NCBI GenBank assembly: GCA_017548525.1
Contig: JAFYZV010000015.1
Location: 1 to 48,317 of the forward strand
DNA: 48,317 nucleotides
Origin: Prevotella sp.
Lineage (GTDB): Bacteria > Bacteroidota > Bacteroidia > Bacteroidales > Bacteroidaceae
Reading direction: 5' to 3'
Below, in pieces: positions 15,948 to 47,993 of the stretch. Positions within the stretch are counted from its first letter, which is position 1. Each line of letters opens with the position of its first letter. Below the pieces are notes generated by a model that was given only the letters and a program-made list of their open reading frames with translations, made no database searches and was not told the origin of the DNA. A program made the translations under genes and the position numbers.

Positions 15948-15975
15948 ATCTTTTCTATTTTTTTGACTTCATTTT

Positions 15976-16041
15976 GGCTATAGCCGCAAACCCTTTCGGC
16001 TATAGGCGCAAACCTTTTTGCCTATAGCCGAAAAGCGATAT
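15976..16041 (-). repeat. 22-bp tandem repeat array (three clear units), inverted copy of the 35.6-kb array
   Basis: Three 22-bp units each begin with a version of GGCTATAGCC. The first 21 bases are the exact reverse complement of 35699-35719. Sequence on to about 16100 also resembles the TATCGGG-type units of that array when read on the minus strand. The spacing of 22 is not a multiple of three, so it is non-coding. Confidence 0.85.
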
Positions 16042-24851: not shown

Positions 24852-24876
24852 CTTTTGGTAGTGGCTCCCAAGGCAC

Positions 24877-24936
24877 AAAAAAAGGTCGCCCGCTGGCGAC
24901 CGACTTGTTAACCTTAAATCTAATACTATGAAAAAC
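24877..24936 (-). ncRNA. Putative small RNA, copy 1
   Basis: On the minus strand a TTTG-N20-TATCTTTG promoter (-7 box 24943-24950) is followed by about 60 nt and then a GC-rich hairpin (GGTCGCC and GGCGACC, 4-nt loop, 24884-24901) and a run of seven U. That is a complete sRNA transcription unit. The 44 bases including the promoter (24907-24950) match copy 2 at 39 of 44 positions, whereas the hairpin sequences differ. No open frame is conserved. Its 3' end faces the 3' end of the 905-residue protein gene. Confidence 0.6.
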
Positions 24937-24942
24937 ACATTG

Positions 24943-26201: not shown

Positions 26202-26223
26202 TGTTATGGCATGAGATAAGGGC

Positions 26224-26285
26224 AAAAAAATAGGGCTCCGCCGAGCCCAACCTTCGTTAACCTTAAATCTAATACCATGAAAAAC
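26224..26285 (-). ncRNA. Putative small RNA, copy 2
   Basis: Same architecture as copy 1 on the minus strand: a TATCTTTG -7 box (26292-26299), a 30-nt conserved 5' part that includes GTTAACCTTAAATCTAATAC as read on the plus strand, then a hairpin GGGCTC/GAGCCC (26233-26248) and a terminal U run made by seven A. The hairpin differs from copy 1 but keeps its shape, which argues for a conserved terminator rather than a recent duplication. Confidence 0.6.
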
Positions 26286-26291
26286 TATGTG

Positions 26292-29478: not shown

Positions 29479-32376
29479 TTAAAACAAGGTACCCATCGCC
29501 GATGAGAGCGAGACCTTGCAACGGTCACATATATCCGTAAGAGTTGCGCCATTGGCAGACAACATGTAAAAATCATCCTCATTGATAAGCACATATTCCC
29601 ACTCACGATCCATCCGCTCATTAGGTTTCAGGTCATTGATCCTATGAATCCACTCCACCGCTGCCGTCTGCTTCTGGCGCACATTCTTATCAAAGAGTTT
29701 ATCTTTGCCTTTTGTCTCTATGAGATAAACCTTTTTGTCTGTTGCCACCATGAAGTCGGGATGATATGTTGCCATCAGTCCGTCACGACGCATATAGTAG
29801 ATGATTGCGAAGGGGTGCATATTCTCACTGATTTTCAAGAAACACTCCACCTCTCCGTCTTTGTCAAGGAATTCGATAAACGCTTTTTCCAACCCTCCGC
29901 TATGCGTGGGATAACCTTGTCGCCCATAGATGCACTTGTGTACTTCCATTGAATACGACTCCCTCATCTTGATTTCCGCAACAGACGAAAAACTGGTATG
30001 GACAACCTGGGCATCCGTCGTCAAGATGTTATTCTGCATGTTAAATATTGCCCATGCCATTTCCTCCATGATATGTTTCGTGACGATGGCATCTTTTGAC
30101 AACAGAATCTTCCAGTCACTTCTGTTGAAAGGATTGAATGGTTGTCCGAACAACCGAGTGCGGATATATCGGTCAACCGCAGCAATCGTCCGTGCTTCAT
30201 TGATTTGTAGATTGGGTATTGGCATCTCCCTACGTGATGAAATTCTATCAAACCGCAACATGATGGTACGGAGTATCTTTTGCAGATATTCATTGTAGCT
30301 GGTTGCCGTAAACAGATTAGCCGTCACTTTGTACCGTCCGAATTGTGTCTTGGAAATAATCTCTTGCGCTATGAACGTCTCACCGTCTTGTGCGAGGAAC
30401 TGGCGAAGCATCTCCAAGGGAAAAGCCGTGAACGGTCGCAAGCCACGTATGTCTATCTCCATATCCTCCAATTTCTCTTCCGCCTCTCTGATGATGATAG
30501 GCCAAACGAAGTCAAACTGTTCATAGCCCTCGCGCAACCCTACCCTAATAAGGTCGCCCGTAGAGCCGCCCGTACCCGTTTCGCCCGTTTCCTCAATGGC
30601 CAACCCATTGGAAAGTAGTTCCTCATAGAATTGGATGAAAGCGGGATGCTCAATGATGCTCAACATGTCGATATACGTCTTGGGTTGGCTATGCAATTGC
30701 AACACGCGCTTACGGTCATCTTCCTTGATGCTTTGGTATTCAGGTTCCCGCCACATCAGGCGCAATCCCCTTCCAATAATCTGTTCCAACAAGATGGGTG
30801 CCTCAGAAGAGCGAAGCGGCACAATTACGCAGATATTGTTCACATCAAACCCCTCGCGAAGCATCAACACCGAAATAATGACCTTGGGTTTCTGGTATTT
30901 GTCTATGTCAAAGAGCCTCTTCTTCGTCTCCTTCCATTCCTCTTCCGACACCTCGCCCTTGGCATTACTGTCAATGGTGACTATCTCATCTCGTGACAAT
31001 CCGTCATTTATCATCATCCGTTCCACAAAAGGAGCCACGGAGGTATCTTCGCAAATGACAAGCATCTTGGGGTTCTTCTTCTCATCAACCACCGTAAAAT
31101 CTGTTTCCAGTTTCTTGAGTTTCGTCAAGCCAGCACGGAGCATCAATCGCTGTCCATCGCTCAAGGCATAAACCTTATTGCGCTCATCACGCACCGCCTT
31201 ATAATCCAAGTCCTTGAGTTCCGTCAACTCTTGGCGGCGATCCAACAACAGGGTCTTCACCAATCCCTTGCGCATGGCAGTTGCCAAGTCGAAGTCAACG
31301 ATGATATGCGGGAAGTAACACTTCTGCATCCTTCTACCCGACCCACGCTGGTCGTAAGGTGTAGCGGAGAAGTCCACTTGGAAAAATCGCCCCCCTTTCC
31401 TCTCGGCAATGACATTCAAGCCCTTTTGCCATTCCACCTCCTCAATCTCGCCATTGCGTTTCAATTCATGGATATGGTGAGCCTCATCATTGATGACCAT
31501 GATGTCCTCCAACTCTGCCAAGTATTCCAACTCAGAGCCACGCAAATAGCGACGGTCCAACATGCCAAGGTCATTGCCCGCCGACTTGCCAGGACGGATA
31601 GGCAACAACTCATCAATCATCTCTGGAACACTCATCCCCTGTCCTTCATCCGATGCCTCTTCGGGAAGTTGGTTCTCAAACAGATGCCAATTGGTCAAGG
31701 CTATCAATCCATCACCCGTAGTCTTGCGCCCAATGCCCTCATCCTTTGTCACCACATTATTTTGGATAAACGAGAACACCTCCTGCCGATAGTGTACCGG
31801 AATGAACACCTCTTGATTCAGATAGAAGTCATTGGTCTGTATGTCACGTGTTTCCTCTCCCCGTTTCATCCTACCACAAAAAGCATCCAACAATCGGTCA
31901 TAGACTATCAAGCCAGGAGCCACGATGAGGAAGTTCTTTGTAAACCGCCCACTCCTCATCTCCTCGTGCCGTGCATTGAGCATCTGCCAAAGCAGCAAGG
32001 CGTGCATCACCCACGTCTTTCCCGTACCCGTTGCCATCTTCACGGCATACTTGGGCATCTGGTATTTCTCTTGTCCCAGTACCCCCAAGTCCACCATGGG
32101 CAAGAGGTCGGGTGTCAACTGCTGGTAATAGTCCAACACATTCCTCACCCCCATAACCTCATGCAGATAGATGACATTGAGGATGGCTTGCCGCTGTCCC
32201 GCATGGAAGTTGCGGTTGCGTAAGGAGCAGTATTCCTCCGAAAACCAATATTTCAATAACGCTTGCGTAGTAGGAGTGACGTTTTCCATCATCTCACCAC
32301 TCTCCCACGCCTCATTGACCGTCTCACTCAATCGCTTGGCCAATTCCAACGAGGCCTTTGTATCGTTTGTTTTCAT
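29479..32376 (-). CDS. res: Type III restriction enzyme, Res subunit
   Basis: A 965-residue helicase-nuclease that, with Mod, translocates or switches on DNA and cleaves unmethylated sites. Superfamily 2 motifs are in order: MATGTGKT with K120, the DEAH box in INDEAHHIHE, SAT in DFSATPYD, and motif VI in QIIGRGLR. The C-terminal nuclease has PDFMV and ETKGK, the PD...ExK site of type III enzymes. Length fits EcoP15I-like Res. The ATG at 32376 (MKTNDTKASLEL) is preferred; an in-frame ATG at 32427 lies beyond the divergent cassette promoter. In most type III loci res directly follows mod; here a cassette on the other strand separates them. Confidence 0.92.
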   Translation of the reverse strand: MKTNDTKASLELAKRLSETVNEAWESGEMMENVTPTTQALLKYWFSEEYCSLRNRNFHAGQRQAILNVIYLHEVMGVRNVLDYYQQLTPDLLPMVDLGVLGQEKYQMPKYAVKMATGTGKTWVMHALLLWQMLNARHEEMRSGRFTKNFLIVAPGLIVYDRLLDAFCGRMKRGEETRDIQTNDFYLNQEVFIPVHYRQEVFSFIQNNVVTKDEGIGRKTTGDGLIALTNWHLFENQLPEEASDEGQGMSVPEMIDELLPIRPGKSAGNDLGMLDRRYLRGSELEYLAELEDIMVINDEAHHIHELKRNGEIEEVEWQKGLNVIAERKGGRFFQVDFSATPYDQRGSGRRMQKCYFPHIIVDFDLATAMRKGLVKTLLLDRRQELTELKDLDYKAVRDERNKVYALSDGQRLMLRAGLTKLKKLETDFTVVDEKKNPKMLVICEDTSVAPFVERMMINDGLSRDEIVTIDSNAKGEVSEEEWKETKKRLFDIDKYQKPKVIISVLMLREGFDVNNICVIVPLRSSEAPILLEQIIGRGLRLMWREPEYQSIKEDDRKRVLQLHSQPKTYIDMLSIIEHPAFIQFYEELLSNGLAIEETGETGTGGSTGDLIRVGLREGYEQFDFVWPIIIREAEEKLEDMEIDIRGLRPFTAFPLEMLRQFLAQDGETFIAQEIISKTQFGRYKVTANLFTATSYNEYLQKILRTIMLRFDRISSRREMPIPNLQINEARTIAAVDRYIRTRLFGQPFNPFNRSDWKILLSKDAIVTKHIMEEMAWAIFNMQNNILTTDAQVVHTSFSSVAEIKMRESYSMEVHKCIYGRQGYPTHSGGLEKAFIEFLDKDGEVECFLKISENMHPFAIIYYMRRDGLMATYHPDFMVATDKKVYLIETKGKDKLFDKNVRQKQTAAVEWIHRINDLKPNERMDREWEYVLINEDDFYMLSANGATLTDICDRCKVSLSSAMGTLF
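32315..32354. repeat. Direct repeat flanking the cassette, copy 1 (inside res 5' end)
   Basis: Forty bases of the res coding start match 33096-33135 at 32 positions; the inner 21 bases (32334-32354) match at 20. On the minus strand it encodes SLELAKRLSETVN. Confidence 0.85.
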
Positions 32377-32393
32377 TGTTTTTGTACGTTTTG

Positions 32394-32424
32394 TTTGTTT
32401 TATCGAATAATATGTGTAAATTTG
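32394..32424 (+). promoter_or_regulatory. Strong promoter for the two-gene cassette
   Basis: TTTG (32394-32397), a 19-nt spacer and TAAATTTG (32417-32424), 29 nt before the small gene's ATG. It fires away from res. Confidence 0.65.
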
Positions 32425-32453
32425 CACCGTCCAAATAATAAAAGATAATCACT

Positions 32454-32591
32454 ATGGAAAAGAAAAAAGTTACATACGAAGAGGCATTGGCACGTTGGAA
32501 ACGCTCATTAGAAATCAAGCATGAGGCAGAGAAACGCATGGCCGAAGAGTGGGAACGCAGAGGAATAACGGGAACGATTGTTTCATTATGA
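32454..32591 (+). CDS. Small charged protein, first gene of the cassette
   Basis: A 45-residue protein beginning MEKKKVTYEEALARWKRS and ending in RRGITGTIVSL. It is predicted to be almost entirely helical, rich in Glu, Lys and Arg. The gene has its own promoter 29 nt upstream and its TGA overlaps the next gene's ATG as ATGA, so translation is coupled. Size, charge and coupling resemble a toxin-antitoxin or immunity partner, but function is unknown. I recall similar small genes ahead of DUF6169 genes in Bacteroides, which would need a search to confirm. Confidence 0.65.
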   Translation: MEKKKVTYEEALARWKRSLEIKHEAEKRMAEEWERRGITGTIVSL

Positions 32592-33085
32592 TACAGCTTC
32601 CTCTTGACATTATTAACGAGCGGACTCACTACTATGTTATGTTGTCGCCTAAAGGCAACTACATTTTCGAGACTAAACAAGGCATCCACTATTCCATTTC
32701 CTTTGAAGAAGAAACCCCATTTGGAGGATGCAGCTCGTATCAGTTTATCATTGATAAGATTGACCGTGTACATTCCCCACATGATCCAGACGTGGAACAA
32801 ACCATTCTTGTTCTCATAGATGAGTTCTTTCGTGCGCATCTTAACGTATTACTCTATATTTGTGACACCAGTGATGGACGAGAATCTAAACGTAATAGAT
32901 TGTTCCTCTCGTGGTTTAACAAACATGCCCAACCAAATAGATTCACCATTCGTACTGCCGAGGCATTCGTGGAAGGACAAGGTTTCTACGCTGCCATCAT
33001 TGTGGAAAATAGGAATCCCAAACTGGCAGACATCATAGACGACTTCAACCAAACTGTTGAGGCTTTGACCAATAACAAGCCATAG
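32588..33085 (+). CDS. DUF6169-like protein, second gene of the cassette
   Basis: A 165-residue protein of unknown function, starting MIQLPLDIINERTHYYVM. The N-terminal half is beta-rich (YYVMLSPKGNYIFETKQG, YSISFEEETPFGG). The C-terminal half has the motif LLYICDTSDGRESKRNRLF and an ending NRNPKLADIIDDFNQTVEAL that match my memory of DUF6169 in Bacteroidetes. The ATG at 32588 is favoured by the 4-nt overlap with the upstream small gene; an in-frame ATG at 32549 lies inside that gene. It converges on mod, ending 55 nt from the mod stop. Confidence 0.72.
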   Translation: MIQLPLDIINERTHYYVMLSPKGNYIFETKQGIHYSISFEEETPFGGCSSYQFIIDKIDRVHSPHDPDVEQTILVLIDEFFRAHLNVLLYICDTSDGRESKRNRLFLSWFNKHAQPNRFTIRTAEAFVEGQGFYAAIIVENRNPKLADIIDDFNQTVEALTNNKP

Positions 33086-33095
33086 TAAGTTCTGA

Positions 33096-33135
33096 TTCAA
33101 CGTTTTACTCCGTTGCTTAGCCAATTCCAACGAGG
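33096..33135. pseudogene. Relic of the res 5' end beside mod (direct repeat copy 2)
   Basis: Read on the minus strand just after the mod stop, this segment gives SLELAKQRSKTLNQ, aligning with SLELAKRLSETVNE at the res N-terminus. DNA identity is 32 of 40. It has no start codon of its own and lies where res would begin if the cassette were absent. Confidence 0.75.
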
Positions 33136-33140
33136 TATTT

Positions 33141-35123
33141 TCAAAAACTTTCAACCACTTGACTTTCAAACCCAAACACATCCACCGCTTTGATGCAAAC
33201 CTTTCGGTGTTCCTTATGTGCCACCCGTAGGCGGGTCTTATAGACACAATGCAACGGGTCGTTGTCGTTCTCAATGTTCTCCCGATAGTCTTGCCAAGTG
33301 GAGCGGAAAGTCACGCCGTCATAGTCGGGGTCGATGCTCCAATATTCTATCAACGACAGCGGGTCGCGTTCCAACACCTGTTGCAATTTCTCCTTATCCT
33401 TTTCATCCAATGGAATATTGTCGGGCGATAGCAAAACGTAGTTTTCCAACTCAACATCTATCTCGTCCCATTCCCCTGCGGGCGTCACCACCAACGGCTT
33501 TGCCATCAAGTATTGCAACGAGGAGAAACGCACACTCTTGTCATCTATCAGCTTCTTGTAGCCCTTCTTCGCCAGCTTATCCAACAAGTCGGGCGGGATG
33601 ACCAACACCTCCACATTCGAGTTAGCGTATTTCTGGATGGCTTGCGAGATGTCAAAAGCATAGTTCCAACCCAACACAACCACCTTTTCCCAGTCGCCAC
33701 CCAATAACGATGCCTTGGCTTCCACCGCCCTGCGAATGGTGGCAGCCGTGGTCAGGCGGTTAGGGGAATCGACCATCACCAATGTCCTCGTACCTTTCAC
33801 ATAACCAAAGTTACGGTCATTCGTCTGCTCGGGAGTGAAAGGCAATGCGCCATATAGTCCTAACACCACTTGGCTCAAGTCGCCCACATGCTTATAACGC
33901 TTATTATTCCTAAACGCTTCCTTCTGATAGTCGCCGATACTCTGATACAAAAACGGCTTTACCTCTTGGTCAATAAACCGCTTGCGCATCACCAATGAGG
34001 CGGGCTTGCCAATGTCGCAAGTAATCCACCTTCTTCCTAAACGCTCTGCTACTGCCGCCGTTGTGCCGCTACCACCAAAAAAGTCACAAACAAGGTCGCC
34101 TTCGTTGGACGAAGCTTTGATAATGCGTTCGAGTAATTCTGAAGGCTTTTGGGTTCCATATCCCACAGCCTCATCTGCTTGAGAATTGATATAGTTAATC
34201 AACCATACATCGGGAGCAATCGTTTGAGTGGTATCTACATAAACAACACGCCCAAATACAGACAAATCAATTCGACCTTCTGCTATAGCTTGTTCCGTTT
34301 TCTCTCTATCATAAACTAATAGTTGTGGCTTACGAATACCATCAATCATGGCCGTGTTCCTATCGTAACCTCTCTCATGTTTTCTCTTTTGATTATCAGT
34401 AGCCTCAACATACACCTTATTAAAGACAACATCATCACTTTTTCCATAATACAATAATGTATCGTGCATCTTTTGAAAACTGCTACTTGCTGCCGTCCAT
34501 CTTCTATAATGCCATATTATTTCATTGCGCAAATGGTCTTTCCCAAAAATATCATCAAGTATTATTTTCACATAATGACCTATATGCCAATCAATATGAA
34601 CATAAATACTCCCTCGTTCAGAAAGAAGCTCTTTCATCAATAATAGCCTTGGATAAATCATCTTCAAATAAGACATCGTCCCCTCTTCCCATGTATCCGC
34701 ATATGCGAACTGCTCAATGACGGTTGGCTTTTGTTGAATATCCGTGCCTGGCAAGGAAATCTTTGTCCGATAATCAGCTTTCGAGTCAAAAGGTGGGTCA
34801 ATATAAATCAAGTCAACCTTACCCCGAAGTGATGGGAGTCCCGTCTGTGGGTCTCCAGCCAAAAGTGCCTGCATTGCCAAGAGGTTGTCGCCATAGATGA
34901 GGCGATTCATCCAACCACCATTCCCTCCAGCCATATTGAAAGCATTGGGAATCTGTGGCTGGATACCCTTGAACAGCCCGCTCACATCCTTACTCGGCAA
35001 CACCAACTCGTTGGTTTGCAAACCAATCTGCGTGCCACTACTCAGCCGCTCCAATATCTGTGCAGCCTCTCTCCTACCCTCGCTCACAATACGGGGCAAC
35101 TCCTCAATCAATGATTTAGCCAT
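33141..35123 (-). CDS. mod: Type III DNA methyltransferase, Mod subunit
   Basis: A 660-residue site-specific adenine methyltransferase that also gives Res its DNA specificity. Motif IV DPPF is at D109-F112 and motif [10 protein letters not shown] at 347-355. This IV-before-I order is the beta class expected of type III Mod. The region between (about 115-340) and the C-terminal 250 residues should include target recognition. The gene lies leftward behind a 295-nt structured leader and an 8-bp hairpin that ends 3 nt before its ATG. The 3' end faces the cassette. Confidence 0.93.
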
Positions 35124-35431: not shown

Positions 35432-35540
35432 CAAAAAATTACGAAAAGATAAAAGAAATGCAAGGATTTTGTTTAGTATGACGGGATAAATGCCGTCAAG
35501 ATTCTTATGTTGATTGATGAATGGCATGAACTAAAGCATT

Positions 35541-35751
35541 GCTTTATCGGGAATAAAGGCATGTGTTATCGGGCAAAAAGGCATGGTTTGTCGGGGAGAA
35601 AGGTATGGGATATCGGGTGCAAAGGTATGCTTTGCGACTTTGCGGCTATAGCCAAAAAGGTTTGCGCCTATAGGCAAAAAGGTTTGTGGCTATAGGCAAA
35701 AGGGTTTGCGGCTATAGCCGAAAGGCCTTACGACTATAGTCAAAATAAAAA
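35541..35751 (+). repeat. 22-bp tandem repeat array
   Basis: Four 22-bp units of a TATCGGG...AAAGGYAT type (35541-35628), a 13-bp partial unit, then five 22-bp units of a GGCTATAGCC...GGTTT type (35642-35751). Each of the latter carries a central CTATAG palindrome. Another degenerate unit may precede 35541. The array lies between the mod leader and the HU-wHTH gene. The period is not a multiple of three and no gene is seen in it. Confidence 0.9.
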
Positions 35752-47525: not shown

Positions 47526-47592
47526 ATGTGCTTATCCAATAAGAGTCAACTGGCAAGAATGTTACCCCAAGCAAGAGGTCACTCCGAGCGTG

Positions 47593-47890
47593 GTGCGCTC
47601 TTATATATCGCCTTTGGCGAGAAATTGAACAAAATTAATGCAAAATTTGAACAAAATATAGGGCATGATCTGGACAAAATACCAATCCTTTATTCATTTT
47701 GATATATTTTTGACTCCAATTTTGGATAATTTCCGCACGTAGTGCGCCCTTATATATCGCCTTTGACGAGAATTTGAACAAAATGAATGCAAAATTTGAA
47801 CAAAATATAGGGCATGATTTGGACAAAATCCCAATCCTTGATTCATTTTGATATAATTTTGACTCCCATTTTGGATAATTTCCGCACGTA
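47593..47890. repeat. Two tandem copies of a 149-bp repeat
   Basis: Copies at 47593-47741 and 47742-47890 are very similar over their whole length and begin with GTGCGC. Each ends with the CGCAC-GTA-GTGCG palindrome that joins it to the next copy. The period 149 is not a multiple of three. The open frames read across it show no known domain, so it is treated as non-coding. Confidence 0.85.
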
Positions 47891-47993
47891 GTGCGCCCCC
47901 TTTCTGCATCTTTCATTTTTCATTTTTCATCTTTCATCTTTCATTTTCAGCGGGCTTGTAGGGGCGGAACCGCGTTTCCGCACGTAGTGCGCC
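47730..47993. repeat. Three copies of a 19-bp palindrome-bearing motif
   Basis: TTTCCGCACGTAGTGCGCC occurs at 47730-47748, 47879-47897 and 47975-47993. Its core CGCAC...GTGCG is a 5-bp hairpin. The third copy lies in the broken HU-family gene. Between the second and third copies lies a CTTTCAT-type microsatellite (about 47907-47948). Confidence 0.85.

What the first reader, a model, noticed from the sequence alone, without database searches (positions are those of the whole stretch)
32315..33135. DUF6169-type cassette inserted between mod and res, flanked by 40-bp direct repeats
The sequence shows a two-gene plus-strand unit (45 and 165 residues, ATGA overlap, own TTTG-N19-TAAATTTG promoter) between the minus-strand type III mod and res. 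The flanks 32315-32354 and 33096-33135 match at 32 of 40 bases, and the mod-side copy translates as a diverged res N-terminus (SLELAKQRSKTLNQ against SLELAKRLSETVNE). The simplest reading is that res once began right after mod, and that the cassette entered with duplication or recombination of the res 5' end. Known type III loci usually keep mod and res adjacent. A coupled small charged protein plus a DUF protein inside a restriction locus could be a toxin-antitoxin, anti-restriction sensor or accessory defence module; that role is inference.
Basis: partly seen in the sequence, partly recalled or inferred. Interest (0 to 1): 0.82.

Follow-up and report, generated by a model that had tools for sequence, protein, structure and literature searches.

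The report
Hopping gene pair inside restriction locus
A tiny two-gene unit, probably a toxin with its antidote, has inserted itself between the two genes of a bacterial DNA-defence system and duplicated the start of the second gene so that neither gene was broken; relatives of this unit sit at many different places in related bacteria, often with the same kind of duplication.

Summary
In empty relatives mod runs straight into res. In the window a 715-bp insert (32377-33091) lies between two copies of the first ~66 bp of res: an intact one (32311-32376) and a decayed one (33092-33144). The insert is a promoter, a 45-aa charged ORF and an overlapping DUF6169 gene. The small partner is found in 121 of 126 distinct cassettes; both genes are under purifying selection. 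The unit is mobile: of 48 distinct cassette pairs at least 80% identical, 43 have both flanks unrelated (recounted). Direct repeats of about 30-225 bp, different at each locus, flank 30 of 122 cassettes, 3 of 142 other ORFs and 0 of 28 GNAT genes, but 9 of 58 PIN or RelE/ParE toxin genes. One exact 94-bp duplication is shown against a 98%-identical empty relative. In two relatives a YoeB module occupies the same mod-res slot. [quoted passage not shown] Toxicity is inferred. A dedicated role in restriction is not supported.

The parts
32311..32376 (-). res-side copy of the duplicated target (about res codons 1-22, functional 5' end of res)
   Evidence: aligned to five empty junctions, overlap 61-67 bp with the other copy; repeat 32311-32359
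32377..33091 (+). inserted unit, 715 bp: 77 nt with promoter, small ORF, DUF6169 gene, 6 nt
   Evidence: absent from 24 of 29 readable homologous mod-res junctions; limits
32394..32424 (+). Bacteroidota-type promoter TTTG-N19-TAAATTTG
   Evidence: pattern found by script; the consensus is recalled
32454..32591 (+). small charged ORF, 45 aa, candidate antitoxin
   Evidence: small ORF just upstream in 121 of 126 cassettes; dN/dS 0-0.26 in the 24 of 25 closest pairs with a usable value
32588..33085 (+). DUF6169 gene, 165 aa, candidate toxin
   Evidence: PF19666 E 2.8e-33; dN/dS 0.03-0.09 in the 25 closest pairs
33092..33144 (-). mod-side copy of the duplicated target: decayed original res start, 13 nt deleted
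33141..35123 (-). mod, type III DNA methyltransferase, 660 aa
   Evidence: PF01555 E 3e-43; PADLOC MTase_III 1.7e-79
29479..32376 (-). res, type III restriction subunit, 965 aa from the ATG at 32376
   Evidence: PF04851 E 4.6e-12; PADLOC REase_III 1.2e-27; 84-86% identical orthologues in three relatives

Best explanation
The cassette is a minimal mobile addiction module. DUF6169 is probably a toxin and the overlapping upstream small charged protein its antidote. The unit is little more than the two genes and at most about 120 nt of its own upstream DNA. It enters new sites by an insertion that re-copies about 30-225 bp of the target, so the interrupted gene or promoter is restored on one side (template switching or illegitimate recombination; mechanism inferred). 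The direct repeats left behind should let recombination delete the unit, but cells that lose an addiction module are selected against, so the repeats persist around toxin modules more than around ordinary genes (inferred). In the window it entered at the start of res, duplicated about res codons 1-22, left res intact behind a new divergent intergenic region and split the mod-res translational coupling. Shown: insertion, target duplication, mobility, conserved pairing, selection, use of the same slot by a YoeB module. Inferred: toxicity, antidote function, biochemical target, insertion mechanism.
For: Exact window duplication on empty sites. Exact 94-bp target duplication around a 785-bp unit in Prevotella sp. 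HJM029 against a relative 98% (left) and 96% (right) identical. Direct repeats flank 30 of 122 cassettes, 24 with score 30 or more, 13 of the 30 being at least 90% identical over at least 50 bp; inverted control 0 of 128 entries, mismatched flanks 3 of 1498, other small ORFs 3 of 142 and random spans 1 of 508, GNAT 0 of 28, PIN 6 of 30, RelE/ParE 3 of 28. DUF6169 against non-toxin genes p 6e-10; toxins against non-toxin genes p 3e-4; DUF6169 against toxins p 0.18. Of 48 distinct cassette pairs at >=80% identity 43 have both flanks unrelated. In 16 close pairs homology starts 1-120 nt before the small ATG and in 14 of 16 ends within 42 nt of the DUF stop; in the other two it runs 71-106 nt past it. 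The script finds a partner for 104 of 106 intact DUF6169 genes; of the two others one is at a contig end and one has a partner by eye. Partner and DUF distances correlate, r 0.83 over 111 cassettes. YoeB module in the same slot and orientation in G734 and G599. Cassette coding exchanged independently of flanks: window-G532 mod 90%, res 88%, cassette 68%; G532-G624 mod 82%, res 80%, cassette 94%.
Against: No toxicity data. The small protein has no recognised antitoxin domain and DUF6169 no PADLOC match and no credible match among solved structures. 92 of 122 cassettes show no detectable repeat. The four other occupied mod-res junctions show no long repeat. Not all 30 repeats are clean: in L045, L048, L050, L053, L054, L071, L076 and L090 further similar stretches lie nearby, L157, L134, L060 and L069 look low in complexity, and in L053 and L108 two DUF6169 cassettes stand in tandem, so the repeat may be shared intergenic DNA. 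Two of the nine known-toxin positives (L207, L291) lie beside a DUF6169 cassette and are not independent. Pairing and co-variation are expected of any linked gene pair. The known-toxin sample is small (58) and many genomes are draft MAGs.
Confidence: 0.65

Rival explanations
1. Guard or accessory of the restriction system, like the anticodon nuclease PrrC inside a type I locus: the pair senses phage inhibition or loss of restriction and then stops the cell.
For: It lies inside type III loci in the window, G532 and G624; upstream of the same mod in G007; a second copy in the same genome (G000:C86) lies between a gene with an MTase motif and a large gene that looks like a helicase by eye. PrrC and other suicide genes occur in R-M loci (passages of PMC3506569).
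Against: In the capped family lists for 208 immediate neighbours restriction genes are few. 24 of 29 readable homologous mod-res pairs lack it and an unrelated YoeB pair uses the same slot. Unlike PrrC it brings its own partner gene.
Confidence: 0.12
2. DUF6169 or its partner is itself the mobility enzyme, making this an autonomous mini-element with long target duplication rather than an addiction module.
For: Multi-copy, mobile unit of only two genes.
Against: PIN and RelE/ParE genes, which encode no such protein, show the same repeats. No conserved ends were seen by eye in the junctions listed, and inverted flank matches reach the threshold in 0 of 128 entries.
Confidence: 0.08
3. The unit circulates by homologous recombination: a circle or fragment carrying the unit plus host DNA recombines by single crossover, giving direct repeats, and new sites arise only rarely.
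For: Direct repeats are the expected product of a Campbell-type event; cassette coding is swapped in place between the G532 and G624 lineages.
Against: In HJM029 the unit ends exactly at the DUF stop codon with no further donor DNA on that side, and 43 of 48 close pairs share no flank. Does not by itself explain entry into new sites.
Confidence: 0.15

Closest known systems
Insertion with long target duplication of restriction-modification genes (Nobusato et al. 2000, Furuta et al. 2010; not read, seen only through citing passages in PMC1643837, PMC3874152 and PMC3031569)
   Same: Gene unit not tied to a known mobile element, variable target duplications of the order of 100 bp, proposed link to post-segregational killing
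   Different: Here the moving unit is a DUF6169 pair and, at a similar rate, PIN and RelE/ParE genes; the unit is only about 0.7 kb; found in Prevotella and other Bacteroidales; in the window a restriction locus is the target rather than the traveller
Type II toxin-antitoxin modules such as YoeB and PIN (VapC) systems
   Same: Small upstream gene, often overlapping the second gene; scattered multi-copy distribution; same insertion footprint; YoeB module in the same mod-res slot
   Different: Neither protein belongs to a known toxin or antitoxin family in the libraries searched; the partner is a short charged protein with no recognised DNA-binding domain
Pfam DUF6169 (PF19666)
   Same: All 46 aligned proteins match it
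   Different: In the window protein the Pfam match covers only residues 65-154; the family is listed as of unknown function, and partner gene and mobility are new here
PrrC guard nuclease inside type I loci
   Same: A possible toxin gene inside a restriction locus
   Different: Not constant in restriction loci; own partner gene; type III locus; antiparallel orientation

Membership tests
Insertion with long target duplication | Empty allele with a single copy of the target, occupied allele with two copies flanking the insert | tested here: met
   L117 against L304: 94 bp; window against five empty junctions: 61-67 bp. Not seen at the four other occupied mod-res junctions
Insertion with long target duplication | Duplication long and variable between insertions | tested here: met
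   30 loci, about 30-225 bp, different sequences
Insertion with long target duplication | Unit is a restriction or modification gene (as in the published cases) | tested here: not met
   Unit is DUF6169 plus a small ORF; the target is the restriction locus
Type II toxin-antitoxin | Two adjacent genes, small antitoxin usually first, usually overlapping or close | tested here: met
   121 of 126 cassettes; commonest spacing a 4-base overlap
Type II toxin-antitoxin | Toxin toxic alone and neutralised by partner | not testable with these tools
   Needs expression; only an indirect sign: 17 of 20 broken, short or start-ambiguous DUF genes keep the partner, while readable intact DUF genes do not lack it
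Type II toxin-antitoxin | Toxin belongs to a known toxin fold | tested here: inconclusive
Type II toxin-antitoxin | Interchangeable with or clustered with known modules | tested here: met
   YoeB pair in same slot; PIN genes beside the copies in G000:C9 and G033:C11, ParE-type gene near the G007 copy; further cases by eye only
Classical transposon or IS | Transposase and terminal inverted repeats, short fixed duplication | tested here: not met
   Unit codes only the pair; inverted flank matches 0 of 128 entries at the threshold; duplications long and variable
Integron gene cassette | attC sites and an integrase | not tested
   Repeats include host gene ends and promoters, which does not fit attC; no search for an integrase was made
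PrrC-like restriction guard | Constant linkage to a restriction system | tested here: not met
   Few in the capped neighbour lists; absent from 24 of 29 readable mod-res junctions

The most novel reading that the evidence does not exclude
In Bacteroidales, addiction modules as a class (DUF6169 pairs, PIN and RelE-type modules) move as bare gene units without a transposase, by a copy-in process that re-copies about 30-225 bp of target, often joining just behind a host promoter; survival of these otherwise unstable direct repeats is itself a footprint of addiction and could be used to discover unknown toxin-antitoxin families from sequence alone.
Probability: 0.4. Interest if true: 0.85.

Novelty: new variant of a known kind. 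Interest (0 to 1): 0.7.

Why it matters
How toxin-antitoxin genes without a transposase reach new sites is an open question. Here one unit has defined limits, an exact empty site, a measurable footprint and a control rate, so the question becomes testable. In the samples examined the footprint separates toxin modules from ordinary genes, which suggests a family-independent way to find new addiction modules; DUF6169, of unknown function, is a first candidate. It also explains this odd restriction locus simply and warns against reading every gene inside a defence locus as part of it.

Tried and rejected
Considered and set aside: chance repeat; repeat carried by the cassette itself (the sequence differs from locus to locus); IS or transposon (no transposase in the unit, no inverted ends); plasmid or phage cargo (no plasmid match for the window protein; no IMG/VR relative; the two 'Bacteriophage sp.' records carry bacterial-looking genes, judged by eye); dedicated restriction accessory. 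L154's empty site was sought without a useful hit (1 of 239 genomes, 69% identity over half the query). L064's comparison was not informative because its closest relative carries other DNA there. Solved-structure searches gave nothing credible. Rfam found nothing in the cassette. DUF6934 is a weak possible relative (8 of 46 members, best E 0.0057), not pursued.

Counting choices. From the 58 places listed, 52 were taken on (6 short fragments dropped); of 135 relatives confirmed the tool kept the best 80; 6 more loci came. One search counted 132 entries; split genes were merged to 128 and, after a recount, to 126 distinct cassettes, of which 122 had enough flank. RelE locus L264 was left out because it has an internal stop; 28 of 29 RelE and 28 of 30 GNAT loci had enough flank; 18 of the 30 PIN loci are from the genus (4 positive). 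One search printed 55 pairs: two self-pairs (L086, L092) and five pairs counted twice through the split L086 gene were dropped, leaving 48: 43 unrelated, 1 same site, 2 one side related, 2 too short. These pairs share members and are not independent; 'unrelated' means under 300 bp aligned. One of the 16 pairs (L139-L141) has related downstream DNA further out. One search printed the 25 closest pairs only. In one search L219 repeats L036, and one of 30 places (L221) ends before res. For the neighbour scans 99 of 126 upstream and 109 of 125 downstream ORFs were given (short and repeated entries dropped), genes over 600 aa cut to 500 aa; ORFs were picked by length, so some may not be genes; each answer shows 25 families of 116, 116, 43 and 117.
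Full report
The window is one whole contig of a draft genome (G000:C109; 255 contigs, 86.8% complete).

Observation. All parts are there. DUF6169 is a Pfam hit at E 2.8e-33; mod and res are type III by PADLOC; the promoter fits the recalled Bacteroidota consensus; the repeat is 49 nt at 78% and exceeds chance.

Empty sites. mod homologues were found at 30 places in 29 of 398 genus genomes, the window's included. Of 29 readable junctions 24 have mod and res within -4 to +36 nt (17 of them within 9 nt), and 5 hold inserts of 604-764 bp. Aligning both window copies to five empty junctions places them on the same 61-67 bp, about the first 22 codons of res. The mod-side copy is the original start, decayed: the ATGA junction has changed and 13 nt are gone; the res-side copy is intact. 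The two other DUF6169-occupied junctions (G532, G624) and both YoeB-occupied ones (G734, G599) show no long repeat, so the duplication is not visible, or not present, in those cases.

Same slot, other passenger. In G734 and G599 the insert is a YoeB toxin (PF06769, E 2.8e-16 for G734; the G599 unit is 71% identical to it) with an 84-aa partner of no recognised antitoxin family, in the same orientation: second gene's stop against mod, first gene's start facing res. In G532 the DUF6169 gene carries a frameshift while the small ORF is intact. Window and G532 share mod (90%), res (88%) and the 77-nt intergenic stretch (93.5%) but only 68% in the cassette, whereas G532 and the more distant G624 share 94% in the cassette with 80-82% in mod and res: cassette coding is exchanged independently of its surroundings.

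The unit. DUF6169 matches occur in 33 of 149 genomes searched as relatives (own genome included), all of the same genus, with up to 6 matches each, in 5 of the 295 other genomes drawn from the phylum, and in Bacteroides, Parabacteroides, Phocaeicola and Hallella records. Of 126 distinct cassettes 121 have a small charged ORF just upstream, most often with a 4-base overlap. The 25 closest pairs give dN/dS 0.03-0.09 for DUF6169 and 0-0.26 for the small ORF in the 24 with a usable value. Distances of the two proteins correlate (r 0.83, 111 cassettes, none of 999 permutations above 0.11). Of 106 intact DUF6169 genes the script found a partner for 104; one exception lies at a contig end and the other (L095) has a partner on inspection that my criteria missed; 17 of 20 broken, short or start-ambiguous genes keep the partner. 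This is what a toxin and antidote would give, but a short ORF is also a smaller target for mutation.

Mobility and footprint. Of 48 distinct cassette pairs at 80% identity or more, 43 have both flanks unrelated, 1 both related, 2 one side, 2 too short to tell (recounted). In 16 close pairs homology starts 1-120 nt before the small ATG and, in 14 of 16, ends within 42 nt of the DUF stop. Direct repeats flank 30 of 122 testable cassettes, 24 with score 30 or more; 13 of the 30 are at least 90% identical over at least 50 bp. Controls: 0 of 128 entries inverted, 3 of 1498 mismatched, 3 of 142 other small ORFs and 1 of 508 random spans in the same loci, 0 of 28 GNAT genes. Known toxins: PIN 6 of 30, RelE/ParE 3 of 28; two of these nine (L207, L291) lie beside DUF6169 cassettes. 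The random-span hit (L072) proved to flank a PIN-like gene with a small upstream gene (PIN match under the family cut-off). The repeats include ends of host genes, terminators and promoters (judged by eye). Not all are clean: further similar stretches lie near eight of the 30, four look low in complexity, and two (L053, L108) are tandem pairs of cassettes. In 16 of 30 the downstream copy starts within 25 nt of the DUF stop, and in 11 of 30 the upstream copy ends within 35 nt of a TAnnTTTG box against 223 of 1960 background windows (p 3e-4), so a third of these units lie behind a host promoter box whose second copy still precedes the next stretch of host DNA.

The cleanest case is Prevotella sp. 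HJM029 (L117). Its relative G501 (L304) is 98% identical on the left and 96% on the right, has the 94-bp target once, and HJM029 has it twice around 785 bp ending exactly at the DUF stop codon.

Why the repeats persist. Direct repeats of 100-200 bp at 95-99% identity should be deleted readily; finding them around toxin modules and rarely around other genes is explained if loss is costly, as argued for restriction-modification genes (passages of PMC3031569 and PMC3874152). The insertion step is open: template switching with re-copying of target fits variable duplications without conserved ends; homology-facilitated illegitimate recombination, invoked for Vibrio effector-immunity arrays (passages of PMC5361080), is a relative. 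These are inferences.

Role in restriction. Among the families shown for immediate neighbours, ResIII is in 4 of 109 downstream and MmeI-type methylase in 2 of 99 upstream, with a few other methylases; the rest shown are mainly metabolic, transport and surface genes (lists capped). A second copy in the same genome sits beside a gene with an MTase motif, and G007 stacks a ParE-type gene, two genes that look like a nucleotidyltransferase/HEPN pair, and a DUF6169 pair upstream of the same mod, so restriction loci are tolerated targets, perhaps favoured, but not the unit's home. In G599 most of res is deleted while the YoeB pair has open frames.

Literature. No paper in the library holds 'DUF6169'. 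Searches for toxin-antitoxin genes with target duplication or flanking repeats, Prevotella toxin-antitoxin insertion and type III loci with inserted modules listed no title or abstract that reports this pattern; the lists are capped and subscription papers are largely absent, so novelty is provisional. Papers seen: passages of PMC1643837, PMC3874152, PMC3031569 (abstract), PMC5361080, PMC3506569; other papers as search listings only. Nobusato 2000 and Furuta 2010 were not read (the latter not held).

Verdict. A real, old insertion with target duplication of a mobile two-gene unit; probably an undescribed toxin-antitoxin-like family; the wider point, that addiction modules share this footprint, rests on 9 of 58 known toxin genes and needs a larger survey.

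Noticed in passing
window 24874-24938 and 26221-26287: Two FopS small-RNA copies (Rfam RF04319) in the same orientation flank a CE2-family esterase gene, with a 44-nt direct repeat at 89%.
   Followed up: partly
window 15972-16034 and 35639-35745: Two tandem arrays of what looks like the same 22-bp unit (GGCTATAGCC core) in opposite orientation, 20 kb apart; another 22/44-bp array at 35532-35634.
   Followed up: no
window 47589-47898: Two copies of a 149-bp tandem unit, 93% matches.
   Followed up: no
L299 (G599 mod-res locus): res is reduced to about its first 81 and last 161 residues while both genes of the inserted YoeB module have open frames.
   Followed up: partly
L071 (G007): A stack of toxin-like modules (ParE-type, a pair that looks like nucleotidyltransferase/HEPN, DUF6169) just upstream of the same mod gene.
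   Followed up: partly
L087 (G000:C86): Another DUF6169 pair of the same genome lies between a gene with an MTase motif and an 836-aa gene that looks like a helicase by eye.
   Followed up: partly
L301 (G532): mod matches the window at 97% only from residue 273 on; the N-terminal part did not align, as if the first part of mod had been exchanged.
   Followed up: no
L053 and L108: Two DUF6169 pairs in tandem, each with its own small ORF.
   Followed up: no
L345 and L346 (MT836080.1, MT836892.1): Two unannotated 'Bacteriophage sp.' fecal records carry DUF6169 with a small ORF upstream, but surrounding genes look bacterial by eye.
   Followed up: partly
alignment A1: 8 of 46 DUF6169 proteins weakly match Pfam DUF6934 (best E 0.0057), a possible sister family.
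   Followed up: no
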